The notes: generated from the sequence alone by a model not told the origin. 36,302 nucleotides of DNA from Candidatus Flavonifractor merdigallinarum (GCA_019115265.1 DXDX01000031.1:1-36302); one strand, 5' to 3'. Shown: positions 1 to 6,449, counted from the first letter of the stretch. Numbers and translations: made by a program.

Positions 1-95
1 AAGCAGCCCTACGGCTCAACCAGGAGGTAGAGAACTTGACCCTGCTGTCCTACAGCTATTGTATCACGGGCATCTCTAAGCCTGCTGATATCTGA
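1..95 (+). CDS. 3' end of upstream ORF (partial); C-terminus ...AALRLNQEVENLTLLSYSYCITGISKPADI*; possibly tail tube-like
   Basis: Open frame from window start to TGA at 93-95; C-terminal 'EVENLTLL' resembles 'VVEKITIV' of the next (tube) ORF. Confidence 0.5.
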   Translation, partial: AALRLNQEVENLTLLSYSYCITGISKPADI

Positions 96-134
96 ATTAT
101 TAACTTTCAAACTTATTATACGAGGAGGTAACGC

Positions 135-524
135 ATGGGAGTGAAAGGATTTCCCACCAGCAGTGATATTTACCTGGAGATCGACGGGAAAAAGGTGGCG
201 GTGGTGCAGAGCTACGCCGCTAAGAGTACCCGTACCAGTCAGACGGTGGAGGCCTTCGGCGAGGATGAGCCGGTGGCCACCATCCCCGGTCCGCGCAACC
301 ACGTCATTGAGCTCACCCGGCTGTATGCCACCGACGAGGCCATCCGGGACAACATTGACTTCCACACCCTGAGTGATTTCAGTCTGGTGATCTGCAAGCC
401 CGACCGGAAAATCATCTACTCCGGGTGTCAGTGGAGCACCATCAACGAGACTGGCGCGCTGGGGGCTATGGTAGTGGAGAAGATTACCATTGTGGCTGCC
501 AAGCGCATTGAGATGGCCGCATGA
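135..524 (+). CDS. Phage tail tube-like protein (XkdM/gp19-like)
   Basis: 129 aa, good RBS (gaggaggtaacgcATG), size and sequence style of tail tube proteins, first of a syntenic tail gene run. Confidence 0.7.
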   Translation: MGVKGFPTSSDIYLEIDGKKVAVVQSYAAKSTRTSQTVEAFGEDEPVATIPGPRNHVIELTRLYATDEAIRDNIDFHTLSDFSLVICKPDRKIIYSGCQWSTINETGALGAMVVEKITIVAAKRIEMAA

Positions 525-1159
525 GCAAGGCCGTAGGTGCGCTGCGGGCCGGAGCGGAACGGCTGGATTTGGGGGAGGGGCGGGCGCTGCGCCTCCTCTC
601 CGCCCAGGAGACTTTGGAGGCCCGGCGGGAGGGGGCGCTGCTGGCCCAGGACGGGACAGAGCGGGCCCTGTGTGCCAACGCCGCACTGCTGGCCCGGGCG
701 CTGGTGGGGGCGGAGGACGCCCCCCTCTATGAGAGCGGCAGCGCGGTGCTTCAGGCCCTCACCGCCCGGGAGATTGGCCGTCTGGCCCGGATTTGGGCCA
801 GATTTGACCGGATGGAGAATCCCACCCCCGCGACCGAAGAGGAGGGGGAGCGCTGGCTGGAGGAGCTGCGGGAGGATCGGGAGGGACGTCTGCGCTGGAA
901 GGTGCTGCGGACCTTTGGGGCTTTGCCCACCGAGGAGCGGGCCAGAGCTATGAAAGAACGGGATTACCTCTGGTGCGCCCTTCAGCTGCTGCTGGATCGG
1001 GAGGAAGAGCTGGACCGGCTGTGTCCTACCTGCCGCGCACAGGCTATGGAGGAGCGCTGTCCTGTGTGCGGTGCCCCCACCGAAAGCGGAGAAGGGGGAC
1101 AGAACGCCGCCTTTGACCAGAGCCGCTATGAGGCCATGTGTCGGGGAGAGAAACCGTGA
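521..1159 (+). CDS. Tail-cluster protein in the tail-assembly-chaperone position, with C-terminal CxxC...CxxC zinc-ribbon-like motif
   Basis: ATGA overlap with tube gene; 'LCPTCRAQAMEERCPVCGAP'. Confidence 0.6.
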   Translation: MSKAVGALRAGAERLDLGEGRALRLLSAQETLEARREGALLAQDGTERALCANAALLARALVGAEDAPLYESGSAVLQALTAREIGRLARIWARFDRMENPTPATEEEGERWLEELREDREGRLRWKVLRTFGALPTEERARAMKERDYLWCALQLLLDREEELDRLCPTCRAQAMEERCPVCGAPTESGEGGQNAAFDQSRYEAMCRGEKP

Positions 1160-1989
1160 GAGATATTTTAGCGGATTTGCTGGAAGAGCAGGAGGAGGCG
1201 GTCCAGCGGGAAACCGCCCTCCCGGAAGAAGAGGAATCGGTGGCGGGAGGGTACCTCCCGCCGCTGGTTGAGAAGCGCGTGGGACGGTCTGCTACCGAAA
1301 CACAGACCGATTTCACCGTGGAGAGAGGGAAAAACGGGCGGGAGACGGCTGCCCCTGTGGAAAACCCGGAAGAGGGGGAGCAGGATGGAAGCGAGATGCA
1401 GAGAGAGCCGCTTTCCCAGCCCGATTTAATCGAGAACAGCAAACAGTTTGACCTTGGAGCGGAGTGGGAGGGCCGGATTCCCGCAAAAACGGAGCCGCTT
1501 CCCATTGGCAGAGGACAGGCGCAGGGGGATGGGGAAGCTCCCGTTTCGGTGTCGGCCCGGGGAGTGACGGAGAGTTGGGCGGAACAGGTTTTGAATGTGC
1601 TGCCCGGCGTGACAGCGGCCCTCTCGGTAAAAAAGTCCGATTCTGTACCGGAGGGAGTGGCGCTCAACAGGGCTCCAGTGCCAACTGTTGAGCCGAGCGG
1701 AGAGAATGCTTCACCGGCAGAAACGGGGATAGATGGGGTATCCGTACAGGAGAAGGGGAGTGGGGTTCAGGAGAACCGCCGGACCTGGAGCAGCGGGACG
1801 CTCTATTCCACTCTGCGGCGCTGGGAGAGTGCCGCATCCTGGCCGGAGAGTGCCGGGCGGTCTGCGCCTGTCCCCCTGTCTGCCGCTGTATCTCAGTCCG
1901 GTGGGACAGGCGGGCTCACCCTGGAGCAGCTGGACCGGGCCGCCCAGCGGGATGCCCGACGGTTTGACGCCCCCTTTCCGCTCTACTGA
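1156..1989 (+). CDS. Uncharacterised low-complexity, Glu/Gly/Ser/Pro-rich tail-cluster protein (tape-measure position)
   Basis: GTGA overlap with previous CDS (alternative GTG at 1138); lies between chaperone-position gene and LysM gene; no recognisable domain. Confidence 0.55.
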   Translation: MRDILADLLEEQEEAVQRETALPEEEESVAGGYLPPLVEKRVGRSATETQTDFTVERGKNGRETAAPVENPEEGEQDGSEMQREPLSQPDLIENSKQFDLGAEWEGRIPAKTEPLPIGRGQAQGDGEAPVSVSARGVTESWAEQVLNVLPGVTAALSVKKSDSVPEGVALNRAPVPTVEPSGENASPAETGIDGVSVQEKGSGVQENRRTWSSGTLYSTLRRWESAASWPESAGRSAPVPLSAAVSQSGGTGGLTLEQLDRAAQRDARRFDAPFPLY

Positions 1990-2000
1990 GGAGGGATAGC

Positions 2001-2585
2001 ATGAGACTGAGCCCCATGCGCTACAAGGATTTTGTGTGGCCCCACAATCCCCGCACCTATGTCATTGAGTACGAGCGGGTGATGGCGGTCAATAAGGTGC
2101 CCTACGGGCGCTATCAGCTCCAGGACTTGGGGCCCACCCGGCGGATACTCCGGGGGGAGGGGGAGTTCGTGGGGGAGGACGCCTACCGCACCTTCCAGAG
2201 CCTGGCCACCGTCTTTTACCAGGAGGGGCCGGGGTTGCTGGTCCATCCGGTGTGGCAGTGCGCCAACGCCTATTTTGTGGAGCTCTCCCTGGCGCAGGAG
2301 CCGAGGGCCGACTATGTGCGCTATACCTTCACGTTCTGGGAGAGCTATGACGACTATGTGGAGCGCCTAACCCCGGTTGGAGGTACGTCTGCCTCTGCGG
2401 GAGGGGGAACTGGAACAGGGAACAACACCGCAGGCACAGGGACCTGGCATACCGTCCGGCGGGGTGAGAGTTTGTGGGCCATTGCCCGGCAGTATGGGCT
2501 GAGCCTCGGCGCACTCATTGCCCTCAACCCCCAGATTAAAAACCCAAACCTCATCTATGTGGGGCAGAAAGTGCGGGTGGCGTGA
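2001..2585 (+). CDS. LysM-domain baseplate/tail protein (XkdP/gp53/Afp7-like)
   Basis: C-terminal LysM 'WHTVRRGESLWAIARQYGLSLGALIALNPQIKNPNLIYVGQKVRVA'; tail cluster context. Confidence 0.85.
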   Translation: MRLSPMRYKDFVWPHNPRTYVIEYERVMAVNKVPYGRYQLQDLGPTRRILRGEGEFVGEDAYRTFQSLATVFYQEGPGLLVHPVWQCANAYFVELSLAQEPRADYVRYTFTFWESYDDYVERLTPVGGTSASAGGGTGTGNNTAGTGTWHTVRRGESLWAIARQYGLSLGALIALNPQIKNPNLIYVGQKVRVA

Positions 2586-3526
2586 TGGAGTGCTGGCTGA
2601 CCGATTATCGAGGGGAGCGCCGGATGCTGCCTCCCCGGACCGCATGGCGGTTTACCTACACATCAGGGACCCCCTGCGACTCCTTTCAGGTGGAGTGCCT
2701 GTGGGGCCAGGAGCGGGAGGACGCTCTGGCCGATGCGGTGCTCTTTGGGGCCTTTGAGGGGGGCGAGACGGTGTTCACCGGCGTGGTAGACGAGTGTGAG
2801 TGTACCTGGGACGGCAATGGCAGCCGCCTTATCGTGACGGGGCGGGGGATGGCAGCCCGGCTGCTGGACAATGAGGCCAAGGGGGCGGACTACCTGGTGG
2901 CCACCTGGGACGATGTGCTGCGGGACCATGTGACCCCTTACGGCATCACGGCGGTGGGTGGGGAGAACCTGCCCCATGTGACGGGCTTTTCCGTGGAGAC
3001 GGGGAGCAGCGAGTGGACGGTGGTGGAGTCCTTTGTCCGCTACTACGGTGGACAGGAGCCCCGGTTTGACCGGATGGGACAGCTCATCCTCTCCGGCTGG
3101 GCCAGCGGCCAGCGGCGAAAGCTGGGGCCGGACTGCCCGGTGACCTCCGCCGTGCTGCGGGACAAGCGCTATGGGGTGCTCTCCCAGGTGCTGGTGCGCA
3201 ATCCCAACGACCAGGGGGAGGAGACGGTGACCAATGAGGATTTTGCACAGCGGGGCGGGATGCGCCGTCAGGTGCTCACCATGCCCCGCAAGAGCGGCTT
3301 TGAGGCCATGCGCTACCGGGCCGACTACCAGCTCCGCCGCTCGGCGGAGGAGCTGCGCCGCCTCACCCTCCGCTCACCCCGGGCCTTTCTGGCCTATCCG
3401 GGCGATGTGGTGGAACTGGAGTTGGAGCGGCCCAAGCTCAGCGGGAGCTGGCGGGTGTGGGAGAGCACCTGCGGAAGCGACGAGAAGGGGACCTATACCG
3501 AGCTGGAGCTGAGCCCGGTATCCTGA
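2582..3526 (+). CDS. Late control gpD / XkdQ-like baseplate hub protein
   Basis: 314 aa, follows LysM gene with 4-bp overlap, order as in PBSX-type tails. Confidence 0.7.
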   Translation: MMECWLTDYRGERRMLPPRTAWRFTYTSGTPCDSFQVECLWGQEREDALADAVLFGAFEGGETVFTGVVDECECTWDGNGSRLIVTGRGMAARLLDNEAKGADYLVATWDDVLRDHVTPYGITAVGGENLPHVTGFSVETGSSEWTVVESFVRYYGGQEPRFDRMGQLILSGWASGQRRKLGPDCPVTSAVLRDKRYGVLSQVLVRNPNDQGEETVTNEDFAQRGGMRRQVLTMPRKSGFEAMRYRADYQLRRSAEELRRLTLRSPRAFLAYPGDVVELELERPKLSGSWRVWESTCGSDEKGTYTELELSPVS

Positions 3527-3543
3527 GAGAGGAGGAAGGGAGC

Positions 3544-3939
3544 ATGTGGATTTCCGACCGAAGGCGGAGAGCACAAGAGGGAGAGGAACCGGTCCAGATT
3601 GGACGGGTGACCATCCCCGGTGACCCAGCCTGTGTGTGGACGGGCAGCGAGCGGCGGGATGCCCCTCTGTTTGGCCCCGGCGGGTACATCTGGCGGCCCA
3701 ACCTGGGAGATGAAGTGCTGGTGCTCAAAACCGGCGAGGGATTTTGCGTGGCCGGTGTCCGAAACAGCGGCGCCTATCTGGCGCCCGGTGAGGTGGCCAT
3801 TCTGGGGCAGAACAACACCCAGATTGTGCTGCGTTCCAACGGGGTCATTCAGATAAATGGGCAGGCGCTGACATTCAATGGAGAAGTGTTGGCCGGAAAG
3901 TTGCCGGAGGAGGAGAGCGGAGAAGGGGGAGAGGAGTAG
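3544..3939 (+). CDS. Baseplate spike-like protein (gpV/OB-fold type)
   Basis: RBS gagaggaggaag before ATG 3544; 'LGDEVLVLKTGEGFCVAGVRNSGAYLAPGEVAILGQNNTQIVLRSNGVIQINGQ' beta-repeat style. Confidence 0.6.
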   Translation: MWISDRRRRAQEGEEPVQIGRVTIPGDPACVWTGSERRDAPLFGPGGYIWRPNLGDEVLVLKTGEGFCVAGVRNSGAYLAPGEVAILGQNNTQIVLRSNGVIQINGQALTFNGEVLAGKLPEEESGEGGEE

Positions 3940-3940
3940 C

Positions 3941-4297
3941 ATGGAGCTGAAGCTGCGGGACGGAGATTATGTGTCCGATGGCCTGGGCGGGGTAGAGCGG
4001 GTGGAAGGAGCAGAGGAGCTCTTGCAGCGGGTGCTGTGGAAGCTGGCCGTGCGGCGGGGAAGCTTTCCCCTGCTGCCGGAGCTGGGCAGCCAGCTCCACC
4101 TTCTCACCCGGGCCAAGCCCGCTGAGCGCTCCGCCCTGGCCAGTCAGTATGCCGCCGAGGCGCTGGCCGACGAGCCGGATTTGCACCTCCAGGCCGTCAC
4201 CCTCACCGAGTCGGGGAGAGAGGGAAGGCTGCGTCTGGAGCTGATGTGGCAGGGGGAGACCTTTACGGTGGAGACCGTACTGGGAGGGAGGGAGTAA
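3941..4297 (+). CDS. gp25/XkdS-like baseplate wedge protein
   Basis: 118 aa; 'LLQRVLWKLAVRRGSFPLLPELGSQLH' resembles gp25/XkdS-type proteins; position before baseplate J. Confidence 0.65.
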   Translation: MELKLRDGDYVSDGLGGVERVEGAEELLQRVLWKLAVRRGSFPLLPELGSQLHLLTRAKPAERSALASQYAAEALADEPDLHLQAVTLTESGREGRLRLELMWQGETFTVETVLGGRE

Positions 4298-4298
4298 C

Positions 4299-5363
4299 AT
4301 CAAAACGATTCAAGAACTGTATACAGATATGCTGGAGACCTTTGAGACGGAGACCGGCAGCGCCCCCGGCGGGACCAGTGACTTGGCAGTGCGCCTCTAT
4401 GCGGTGGCGGCGCAGATCTATGCCCTGTATGTCCAGAGTGAGTGGGTGACCCGGCAGTGCTTTCCCCAGAGCGCCCAGGGAGAGTATCTGGACCTCCACG
4501 CCGCCCTGCGGGGGGTGGAGCGGAAGGCCGCCGTACAGGCCCAGGGGGAGATTGCTTTTCAGGTGGAAGAGGCATCCCAGAATGCGCTGACCATCCCGGC
4601 GGGCACCGTGTGTCTGACGGCGGGGCTGGTGCGCTTTGAGACCCTGGAGGAGGGCGTTCTCAATCCGGGGGAGACGCAGGTGCTGGTGCCCGCCCGGGCG
4701 GTGGAGCCGGGGGCGGAGGGCAATGTGGCGGCGGGGACCATCCGTTCTATGGCGGTGGCCCCGGTGGGCATTGAGGGCTGTTATAACCCCCAGTCCTTCA
4801 CCGGCGGCAGCGATTCAGAGGACGATGAGGGCCTGCGGGCACGGGTGCTGGAGACCTACCGGCGCCTGCCCAACGGCGCCAACGCAGCCTATTACTATCA
4901 GGAGGCTATGTCCTTTGAAGAGGTGGCCGCTGCTTCCATCCTCTGCCGCCCCAGAGGGGTGGGAACGGTGGATGTGGTGGTGTCCACTGCCCAAGGGGCA
5001 CCCGGCAAAGAACTGCTGGAGACCCTCCAGGCCCATTTTGAGGAGCGGCGGGAGATTTCGGTGGACGTGGTGGTCCGCGCCCCGGAGGAGCAGACGGTGG
5101 ATTTGGAGATGAAGGTCTCCCCGGCGGAAGGGTACACGTCAGAGGAGGCACGCACCGCTGCGCAGAGCGCGCTGGAGGGCTGGTTTGACGGTACCAGACT
5201 GGGCAAGAGTGTGCTGCGGGCAGAGCTGTGCAGCCGGGTCTTTGCCCTGAAAGAGGTGTCCAACTGTGCCCTCACCAAGCCCGCGGAGGACCAGCTCCTG
5301 GATGCCGATGTGCTGCCCCGTCTGGGTCAGCTCACTGTGGGCGACCTGGGGGTGGGCGTGTGA
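4299..5363 (+). CDS. Baseplate J/gp47 (XkdT)-like protein; start uncertain (ATC 4299 or ATG 4329)
   Basis: 'SGGSDSEDDEGLRARVLETYRRLPNGANAAYYYQEAMS' style baseplate-J signature ('TGGSDSEDDEGLRARV'). Confidence 0.85.
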   Translation: MKTIQELYTDMLETFETETGSAPGGTSDLAVRLYAVAAQIYALYVQSEWVTRQCFPQSAQGEYLDLHAALRGVERKAAVQAQGEIAFQVEEASQNALTIPAGTVCLTAGLVRFETLEEGVLNPGETQVLVPARAVEPGAEGNVAAGTIRSMAVAPVGIEGCYNPQSFTGGSDSEDDEGLRARVLETYRRLPNGANAAYYYQEAMSFEEVAAASILCRPRGVGTVDVVVSTAQGAPGKELLETLQAHFEERREISVDVVVRAPEEQTVDLEMKVSPAEGYTSEEARTAAQSALEGWFDGTRLGKSVLRAELCSRVFALKEVSNCALTKPAEDQLLDADVLPRLGQLTVGDLGVGV

Positions 5364-5941
5364 GCTATGGGCAGTATCTGAAAGACCTGCTGGAGCCTAT
5401 GGGGGTGTACCGCCTCCAGAATTCCCTCAACGGCGCGGAGCTGGAGAGCGAGGGAGCCGCGCTGGACGGGGTGGACAGCGCCCTGGAGCACATCGAGAGG
5501 GAGATGATTCTCCTCACCGCCGAGGGGGAGGGTCTGGAGAAGATTGAGAGCCTTCTGACCCGCCGGCCGGTGACCACCACCCTCAACGCCCGGCGGGCCG
5601 CTTTGGCGGCCTTGCTGCGCATCGGTGGGGACAGCTTTACCCTCACCGCCATCAATGACAACCTCCGGGGGTGCGGCATCCACGCGGTGGCCAACGAGAC
5701 CGGGCGGCCCAACTATGTGCAGGTCTCCTTTCCTAATGTGCCCGGTATCCCCAAGGGCTTTGAGGAGATGCGCAAAATTATCGAGGACATTCTCCCCGCC
5801 CATATCGGGATTGAGTATGTCTACTGGTTCATCACCTGGGCGGAGCTGGAGCGCCGGTTTGACACCTGGGGAGAGATTGAGGATATGCATTTGAGCTGGG
5901 AAGAGCTGGAGACCCTGGTGCGGGAAGAGGAGGATCTATGA
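5360..5941 (+). CDS. Tail protein I / XkdU (YmfQ)-like
   Basis: GTG start with GTGA overlap (MSYGQYLKDLLEPMGVYRLQNSLNGAELESEGAALDGV...); follows baseplate J. Confidence 0.75.
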   Translation: MSYGQYLKDLLEPMGVYRLQNSLNGAELESEGAALDGVDSALEHIEREMILLTAEGEGLEKIESLLTRRPVTTTLNARRAALAALLRIGGDSFTLTAINDNLRGCGIHAVANETGRPNYVQVSFPNVPGIPKGFEEMRKIIEDILPAHIGIEYVYWFITWAELERRFDTWGEIEDMHLSWEELETLVREEEDL

Positions 5942-6402
5942 GAGCGGAACAGAGACAGCGCGGACTCATTGTCTATGAGATGGAGTGGGAGGACCGGGTG
6001 CGGCAGGCGATGGAGCAGATGCTGCGCCTCAGCGCCCAGAGCTTGGATGACCAGCAGGCCGCCCAGGTGGGGGCGCTGTTCCCCCGCTGGGAGGCGGGGA
6101 TGACCTATGAGGCGGGAACGCGGCTGGCCGATGAAATGGGGAATCTCTACAAGGTGGTACAGAGCCACACCAGCCAGAGCGACTGGCCCATGGAGGGGAC
6201 TCCCGCGCTCTACACCTGTCTGGGTGTGACAGCGGAGGAGCCCGACTCGATTCCCGACTGGCGTCAGCCTACCGGGGCCCACGACGCCTACCAGAAGGGA
6301 GATAAAGTGCGCTATGGCGGGAAGATCTACCGTTCCCTCATGGACGGAAATGCCTATGCGCCTGATACCCCCGGAGAGCTGTGGGAATTGCTGGAGGAAT
6401 AA
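5938..6402 (+). CDS. Terminal tail-cluster protein with carbohydrate-binding (CBM5/12-like) modules, putative fibre/receptor binding
   Basis: ATGA overlap; 'AYQKGDKVRYGGKIYRSLMDGNAYAPDTPGELWELLE' and 'TYEAGTRLADEMGNLYKVVQSHTSQSDWPME'. Confidence 0.65.
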   Translation: MRAEQRQRGLIVYEMEWEDRVRQAMEQMLRLSAQSLDDQQAAQVGALFPRWEAGMTYEAGTRLADEMGNLYKVVQSHTSQSDWPMEGTPALYTCLGVTAEEPDSIPDWRQPTGAHDAYQKGDKVRYGGKIYRSLMDGNAYAPDTPGELWELLEE

Positions 6403-6407
6403 AAATT

Positions 6408-6449
6408 AAAACCCGCTGGGGAACGGTCAACTGTTCCCCAGCGGGTTTT
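6408..6449. terminator. Bidirectional intrinsic terminator between tail cluster and ABC-class ATPase
   Basis: aaaaCCCGCTGGGGAAC-ggtcaact-GTTCCCCAGCGGGtttt. Confidence 0.9.

What the first reader, a model, noticed from the sequence alone, without database searches (positions are those of the whole stretch)
1..6402. Minimal contractile tail-like cluster without visible tape measure, capsid or lysis genes
Seen: tube, chaperone-position, 278-aa low-complexity ORF, LysM, gpD-like hub, spike, gp25-like, baseplate J, tail protein I and a carbohydrate-binding terminal protein in one tightly overlapping run. Only ~830 bp separates the chaperone-position gene from the LysM gene, where PBSX/diffocin/Myoviridae tails normally carry a long tape-measure gene. 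The run ends in a bidirectional terminator with no holin or endolysin, next to an unrelated ABC-class ATPase. Known: PBSX and diffocins have both a tape measure and lysis genes. Inference: a domesticated contractile injection or tailocin-like system with a very short tube, or one with an unusual or unlinked length determinant and non-lytic deployment.
Basis: partly seen in the sequence, partly recalled or inferred. Interest (0 to 1): 0.75.

Follow-up and report, generated by a model that had tools for sequence, protein, structure and literature searches.

The report
Half of a phage-derived DNA-packaging particle
The 'tail without a head' is the second half of a complete, anciently domesticated phage-like particle (head, DNA-packaging motor and a very short contractile tail) that gut Oscillospiraceae inherit like a normal gene set; it is probably a gene transfer agent, and it looked headless only because the assembly breaks inside an inserted transposon.

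Summary
The tail genes are real and intact, but the 'missing' head is an assembly artefact. Base 1 is a contig end inside an IS110-family insertion sequence. Contig C10 of the same genome ends in the other end of that element and carries sheath, neck, capsid, portal, terminase and protease-like genes. Intact relatives show one ~13 kb, ~20-gene operon without integrase, repressor or replication genes.

The operon is single-copy and intact in 144 of 400 sampled family genomes, is in all 9 congeners, and is rare outside the order. Its tree matches rpoB (19 of 25 splits; distance r = 0.90). All genes are under purifying selection. So it is an ancient, vertically inherited domesticated phage, not a prophage.

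The tape-measure observation holds. In 154 loci the tube-LysM gap is only 31-1550 bp. It holds a chaperone (usually made by a conserved programmed -1 frameshift) and a small disordered protein with a conserved C-terminus, probably a miniature tape measure.

In the window's lineage the small terminase has lost its N-terminal DNA-binding region. Best explanation: a gene-transfer-agent-like particle with a short contractile tail. A 2026 paper saw GTA-like packaging in Oscillospiraceae but identified no operon there. Particle production and DNA transfer are untested.

The parts
1..128 (-). End of an IS110-family insertion sequence, the cause of the contig break; the inserted copy interrupts the operon at the ribosome-binding site between sheath and tube
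   Evidence: 99%, 97% and 98% matches to three other places in the genome; transposase next to the copy in L003; other end of the element is the end of contig C10, 130 bp 100% identical to C187:1-130
135..524 (+). Tail tube protein
   Evidence: phrog_27038 1.6e-60 (function unknown) and phrog_985 8.9e-6 'virion structural'; follows the sheath gene in all contractile relatives; tube role inferred from position
521..1159 (+). Tail assembly chaperone (G/GT type), fused in one frame here; in most relatives made by a programmed -1 frameshift
   Evidence: N and C parts are offset by -1 in 58 of 69 loci, with A7G or A9C slippery run and a covarying stem-loop in the A7G lineage; best PDB fold match is the HK97 tail assembly chaperone 2ob9, weak, E 0.48
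1156..1989 (+). Low-complexity 277-aa protein, candidate miniature tape measure; conserved C-terminus ...LDRAxQRDARRxD...FPLY
   Evidence: C-terminal motif shared by most relatives while length and the rest vary; position directly after the chaperone; role inferred
2001..2585 (+). LysM baseplate/hub-adaptor protein (XkdP-like position)
   Evidence: LysM 8.8e-16, DNA_circ_N 2e-5; phrog_380, phrog_184
2582..3526 (+). Baseplate hub (gpD/XkdQ-like)
   Evidence: phrog_177 baseplate hub 5.2e-33
3544..3939 (+). Spike-position protein
   Evidence: phrog_25991 1e-19, function unknown; role by position
3941..4297 (+). gp25-like baseplate wedge / sheath initiator
   Evidence: phrog_43 8.3e-8; PF07409 8.6e-4 and PF10934 0.016, both below cut-off
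4329..5363 (+). Baseplate J protein
   Evidence: PF04865 3.5e-52; phrog_6 1.3e-66
5360..5941 (+). Mu gp48 / tail protein I-like baseplate protein
   Evidence: PF10076 2.6e-7, below cut-off; phrog_521 1.5e-18
5938..6402 (+). Carbohydrate-binding (CBM5/12) terminal protein, likely receptor-binding
   Evidence: PF02839 3.5e-13; recognisable only in close relatives
6408..6449 (.). Bidirectional intrinsic terminator, 3' end of the operon
   Evidence: 19-pair stem with T tracts on both strands

Best explanation
The cluster is the tail half of a host-domesticated phage operon of about 20 genes that encodes a complete headed particle with a short contractile tail. Shown from sequence: terminase, portal, protease-like protein, capsid, neck, sheath, tube, chaperone and baseplate genes are conserved in order, intact, under purifying selection, single-copy and vertically inherited in Oscillospiraceae, without integration, regulation or replication genes. 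Inferred: when the host expresses it, capsids are filled by the large terminase with host DNA without a phage-specific start site (the small terminase has lost its DNA-binding region in this lineage). A chaperone-loaded miniature tape measure of about 100-280 residues sets a tail tube of only some tens of nanometres, the sheath contracts on contact, and DNA enters related cells: a gene transfer agent with a contractile tail. Release probably uses an endolysin that is adjacent in some genera and unlinked here.
For: Head, neck and packaging module on the adjoining contig and in all intact contractile relatives. MCP in 144/400 family genomes, nearly always one copy and no internal stops, 89/198 in one other family of the order, and only 4/398 across the phylum including this genome; tube gene in all nine congeners. 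Element tree vs rpoB: 19/25 splits shared (label-shuffle maximum 3), patristic r 0.90 (shuffle maximum 0.36). dN/dS 0.09-0.52 for every gene between this genome and its nearest relative. Walker A, Walker B and nuclease aspartates of TerL conserved in all 12 sequences. Small terminase about 95-108 aa in this lineage, stop-to-stop only 96-106 aa in several genomes, so it cannot contain the N-terminal region of the ~150-aa form; it matches only Terminase_2 positions 63-127 against 6-128 for the long form. Third neck protein folds as a tail terminator (PhiTE connector 1.9e-7; lambda gpU; pyocin and diffocin collars). Virome contig L042 carries the element next to housekeeping genes (recG, thymidylate synthase, racemase, nucleoside phosphorylase, HAD hydrolase). 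Independent observation of GTA-like packaging in Oscillospiraceae with no operon identified there (PMC12946183).
Against: No particle, packaged DNA or transfer has been shown for any of these operons. Oscillibacter/Dysosmobacter-type relatives keep the long small terminase, so non-specific packaging is not inferred for them. No lysis gene is linked in the window's genome, and its operon is interrupted by an insertion sequence that could affect expression. The element is absent from about two thirds of sampled family genomes, so losses must be common. Two strongly supported tree conflicts remain. Characterised GTAs have non-contractile tails or none seen; the contractile relative PBSX kills rather than transfers.
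Confidence: 0.68

Rival explanations
1. PBSX-like element: a domesticated defective phage whose headed particles carry host DNA but act as a bacteriocin, killing competitors by contraction without delivering DNA.
For: Same gene order as PBSX (sheath, tube, chaperone, tape-measure position, LysM, hub, gp25, J, gp48-like; family matches). Contractile tail. The terminal CBM protein, recognisable only in close relatives, could set target range.
Against: No linked lysis module or immunity gene in the window; packaging genes are under selection at least as strong as tail genes (TerL 0.14, MCP 0.11), which killing alone would not demand; small-terminase degeneration parallels that reported for FpGTA.
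Confidence: 0.22
2. Headless contractile tailocin or injection system with no tape measure.
For: As seen in the window alone: tail genes only, tight operon, no lysis genes.
Against: Complete head and packaging module on the adjoining contig and in all intact contractile relatives; sequence conservation strong in capsid, portal and terminase.
Confidence: 0.03
3. Ordinary prophage, or prophage remnant, truncated by the contig end.
For: Every structural gene is of phage origin; IMG/VR lists similar ~13 kb stretches as viral.
Against: Single intact copy per genome, congruence with rpoB, purifying selection, no integration, repressor or replication genes recognised in intact relatives, housekeeping neighbours in L042.
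Confidence: 0.07

Closest known systems
FpGTA of Faecalibacterium (PMC12946183)
   Same: Gut Oscillospirales; domesticated operon with a TerS lacking an obvious DNA-binding domain, TerL, portal and capsid; widespread in its genus; no replication genes; packages random host DNA (8.4-8.9 kb, shown in that paper)
   Different: FpGTA I is 10 ORFs, described as probably podovirus-like, with baseplate and lysis genes in a second operon; ours is one ~20-gene operon with sheath, tube and full baseplate. Homology was not tested: no named Faecalibacterium sequence was available. Sheathless relatives L132, L046, L047 and the head-plus-reduced-tail operon L133 (~9.6 kb) look like possible intermediates.
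RcGTA (Rhodobacter capsulatus gene transfer agent; PMC7296036)
   Same: Vertically inherited phage-derived cluster of similar size; small tape measure (about 216 residues; five tube discs), comparable with the 277-aa ORF here
   Different: Non-contractile tail, different gene order; alphaproteobacterial
PBSX of Bacillus subtilis
   Same: Gene order of tail and baseplate (XkdK-XkdU), contractile tail with head, domesticated in a Gram-positive host (from knowledge)
   Different: PBSX has a long tape measure gene and a linked holin/endolysin module; here the tape-measure position holds 100-280 aa and no lysis gene is linked
Diffocins, monocins and R-pyocins
   Same: Contractile tail, tail terminator/collar fold
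   Different: These are headless; this operon has capsid, portal and terminase
Deep-sea thermophilic phage D6E and Psychrobacillus phage PVJ1 (closest TerL among named phages)
   Same: TerL 50.5% identical
   Different: Complete phages; the sheath of our element finds no named phage at E 1e-5

Membership tests
Gene transfer agent | Structural and packaging genes but no integration, regulation or replication genes in the cluster | tested here: met
   Intact operons in relatives
Gene transfer agent | Vertical inheritance with the host, purifying selection | tested here: met
Gene transfer agent | Functional-looking large terminase | tested here: met
   Catalytic motifs conserved in 12 sequences
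Gene transfer agent | Small terminase without specific DNA recognition | tested here: met
   DNA-binding region missing in the window's lineage; NOT missing in Oscillibacter/Dysosmobacter-type relatives. Loss of recognition itself is inferred
Gene transfer agent | Particles package random host DNA, in pieces too small to carry all own genes | not testable with these tools
   Needs particle purification; only indirect support (PMC12946183; virome contigs)
Gene transfer agent | DNA delivered to recipient cells | not testable with these tools
   Needs a transfer assay
PBSX-like element | Headed contractile particle with PBSX tail gene order | tested here: met
PBSX-like element | Long tape measure gene | tested here: not met
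   Gap 31-1550 bp in 154 loci; PhageMin_Tail absent from single-contig genomes G109, G395 and G159
PBSX-like element | Linked holin/endolysin module | tested here: not met
   None in the window; M15 peptidase near the operon end in nine relatives only
Tailocin / extracellular contractile injection system | No capsid or packaging genes | tested here: not met
Tail assembly chaperone (gpG/gpGT) | Two overlapping reading frames joined by programmed -1 frameshift upstream of the tape measure position | tested here: met
   58/69 loci in -1 frame, slippery A-run, covarying stem-loop; fused in frame in the window itself; frameshifting itself not measured
Tape measure protein | Position after the chaperone; length sets tube length | tested here: inconclusive
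   Position and conserved C-terminus met; ruler function not testable here

The most novel reading that the evidence does not exclude
A family-wide gene transfer agent of gut Oscillospiraceae with a contractile tail, whose tape measure has shrunk to 100-280 residues; it would account for the GTA-like packaging seen in Oscillospiraceae (Onthomonas) for which no operon was found, and may share ancestry with the Faecalibacterium GTA, giving a series from contractile to sheathless to tail-reduced particles.
Probability: 0.5. Interest if true: 0.85.

Novelty: new variant of a known kind. Interest (0 to 1): 0.74.

Why it matters
If right, a large share of gut Oscillospiraceae and related families carry an inherited DNA-packaging particle. 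That would give a concrete genetic basis for reported but unassigned packaging of their chromosomes, and a route of gene flow in a major gut lineage. It would also add a contractile gene transfer agent to the known kinds, and give a natural experiment on how small a tape measure can become. It explains why automated tools see a 'small prophage' or a 'headless tail' in these genomes.

Tried and rejected
Headless tailocin or injection system: rejected after finding the head module on C10 and in relatives. Ordinary prophage: rejected on single copy, vertical inheritance and lack of life-cycle genes. Unlinked tape measure: the commonest tape-measure family (PF10145) is absent from three single-contig genomes and from G000 itself; other tape-measure families were not searched. 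A first rpoB tree was wrong because antisense frames were picked; redone. The longest-ORF gene caller failed in this GC-rich DNA and was replaced by a codon-usage caller. A tblastn of the 30-residue C-terminal motif against phages found nothing. Alignment A3 contained three rows without the true chaperone frame and was replaced by A4. The covariation test covers only the A7G lineage, and the region is also protein-coding, which can mimic part of the signal.

Full report
WHAT IS AT THE COORDINATES. Family searches give LysM plus DNA_circ_N for 2001-2585, baseplate hub for 2582-3526, Baseplate_J (3.5e-52) for 4329-5363, a Mu gp48-like protein for 5360-5941 and CBM5/12 for 5938-6402. The gp25-like and spike-position genes are supported by PHROGs more weakly or by position. 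A strong bidirectional terminator closes the run at 6408-6449.

WHY IT LOOKED HEADLESS. The window is a complete contig (G000:C99). Its first ~128 bases occur at three other places in the genome, next to an IS110-family transposase in one of them. All four copies end in ...ACGAGGAGG directly upstream of a gene start. Contig C10 ends with the opposite end of the same element (130 bp, 100% identical to C187:1-130), right after the stop codon of a sheath gene. In congeners the sheath stop codon and the tube ribosome-binding site are adjacent (e.g. TAAGGAGG...ATG in L024). C10 carries, in operon order: a PRK06851-like ATPase gene, a short small terminase, large terminase, portal, protease-like protein, a small head protein, capsid, three neck proteins and sheath. 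That C10 and C99 flank one element copy is an inference, because the element has several copies. It is supported by identical gene order in every intact contractile relative.

THE WHOLE OPERON. Intact relatives (L024 and others) show about 20 genes over ~13 kb: small terminase, large terminase, portal, protease-like, head protein, capsid, two connectors, tail terminator, sheath, tube, chaperone, low-complexity protein, LysM, hub, spike position, gp25-like, J, gp48-like and, in close relatives, CBM. The third neck protein was modelled at mean pLDDT 82. It matches tail terminators and collars (PhiTE connector 1.9e-7, lambda gpU, diffocin and R-pyocin collars).

IT IS DOMESTICATED. The capsid gene occurs in 144 of 400 sampled genomes of the family, almost always once and without internal stops. 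It occurs in 89 of 198 genomes of one other family of the order and in 4 of 398 across the phylum, one of them the window's own genome. All nine congeners have the tube gene. Named carriers include Flavonifractor, Pseudoflavonifractor, Oscillibacter, Dysosmobacter, Intestinimonas and Lawsonibacter. For 28 genomes the concatenated element tree shares 19 of 25 splits with rpoB (label shuffles: mean 0.2, maximum 3), and patristic distances correlate at 0.90 (shuffle maximum 0.36). Two well-supported conflicts remain. Between this genome and its closest relative every gene has dN/dS of 0.52 or less, with capsid 0.11, tube 0.09 and terminase 0.14. No integration, repressor or replication genes were recognised in intact operons. 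In L042 the upstream neighbours are recG, thymidylate synthase, a racemase, a nucleoside phosphorylase and a HAD hydrolase.

THE TAPE MEASURE. Three single-contig genomes that carry the operon have no PF10145 tape-measure gene anywhere (G109, G395, G159). Two things occupy the gap. First, a chaperone: in 58 of 69 loci its two halves lie in -1 relation, with a slippery A7G or A9C run at a nearly constant distance from the tube gene. In the A7G lineage a 12-pair stem follows, with 13 cells changed on both sides (0 of 500 shuffles reach this) and 94% of cells paired. This is the signature of phage tail assembly chaperones, which normally load the tape measure (established knowledge; lambda G/GT). 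The best fold match of the fused window protein is the HK97 tail assembly chaperone, but weakly (E 0.48 and 0.96, ranks 1 and 2). Second, a disordered protein of variable length that ends in a conserved motif of the type LDRAFQRDARRYDGGFxLY in most relatives. Its position and C-terminal anchor suggest a miniature tape measure. RcGTA offers a precedent: about 216 residues and five tube discs (PMC7296036). That this protein sets tail length is inference.

PACKAGING. The large terminase keeps its ATPase and nuclease motifs. The small terminase comes in two forms. The ~150-aa form matches Terminase_2 over positions 6-128 (L136). The ~95-108-aa form of the window's lineage matches only positions 63-127, and in several genomes the reading frame is too short to hold the missing region. 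Loss of the DNA-binding part fits packaging without a specific start site, as reported for FpGTA (PMC12946183).

FUNCTION AND RIVALS. The gene transfer agent reading explains selection on packaging genes, vertical inheritance and small-terminase decay. A PBSX-like killing particle is the main rival and cannot be excluded by sequence. A 2026 study found GTA-like packaging of Oscillospiraceae (Onthomonas) DNA in faecal particles, searched an Onthomonas MAG for an operon, and reported a strong candidate only in Faecalibacterium. Virome contigs from Mexican faecal samples carry this element. They probably come from the DNase-treated particle study PMC8361208, but that link was inferred from the sample description and not verified. 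Whether Onthomonas carries the operon, and whether FpGTA is homologous, was not testable here. No paper in the library joins gene transfer agents with Flavonifractor; the library lacks most subscription journals and preprints.

VARIANTS. Some relatives lack the sheath (L046, L047, L132, L229, L264). L133 keeps the head and a reduced tail in ~9.6 kb, and in L145 only the head and neck genes were recognised. Nine loci have an M15 peptidase gene near the end of the last baseplate gene, so lysis genes are linked in some genera.

Noticed in passing
window 1-128; L003 1501-1641; L002 and L004 ends; G000:C10:1-130; G000:C187:1-130: An IS110-family element is present in four or more copies, each ending in ACGAGGAGG right before a gene start (tube, MatE-type transporter, TetR-like regulator, OppA-like protein). 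It appears to insert into Shine-Dalgarno sequences and to leave the downstream gene with an intact ribosome-binding site.
   Followed up: partly
L046 (MT836604), L047 (MT835952), L132 (G058), L229, L264: Related operons that lack a recognisable sheath gene; in L229 and L264 the tube is followed directly by the LysM gene, with no chaperone or tape-measure candidate.
   Followed up: partly
L133 2734-12310 (G757:C21): A ~9.6 kb relative with head genes and a reduced tail; its length is like the 9.6 kb reported for FpGTA I in F. prausnitzii APC918/95b, but its identity is unknown.
   Followed up: partly
L049, L050, L053, L054 and others, about 335-354 bases after the tube match: Slippery A7G run followed by a stable 12-pair hairpin, and an A9C run without that hairpin in another lineage: two versions of a -1 frameshift site for the same chaperone gene.
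   Followed up: yes
L140 15692-16366; L035, L071, L103, L105, L111, L114: An M15 D-Ala-D-Ala carboxypeptidase-type gene (endolysin-like) sits just after the last baseplate gene in some genera.
   Followed up: partly
L035 (G009:C9): G009 holds a second, diverged copy of the operon (tube 70% identical) on a short contig; second locus or assembly contamination not resolved.
   Followed up: no
G000:C94:22029-22490 (L036): A second, unrelated sheath gene in the same genome, near the end of another contig; probably a separate prophage.
   Followed up: no
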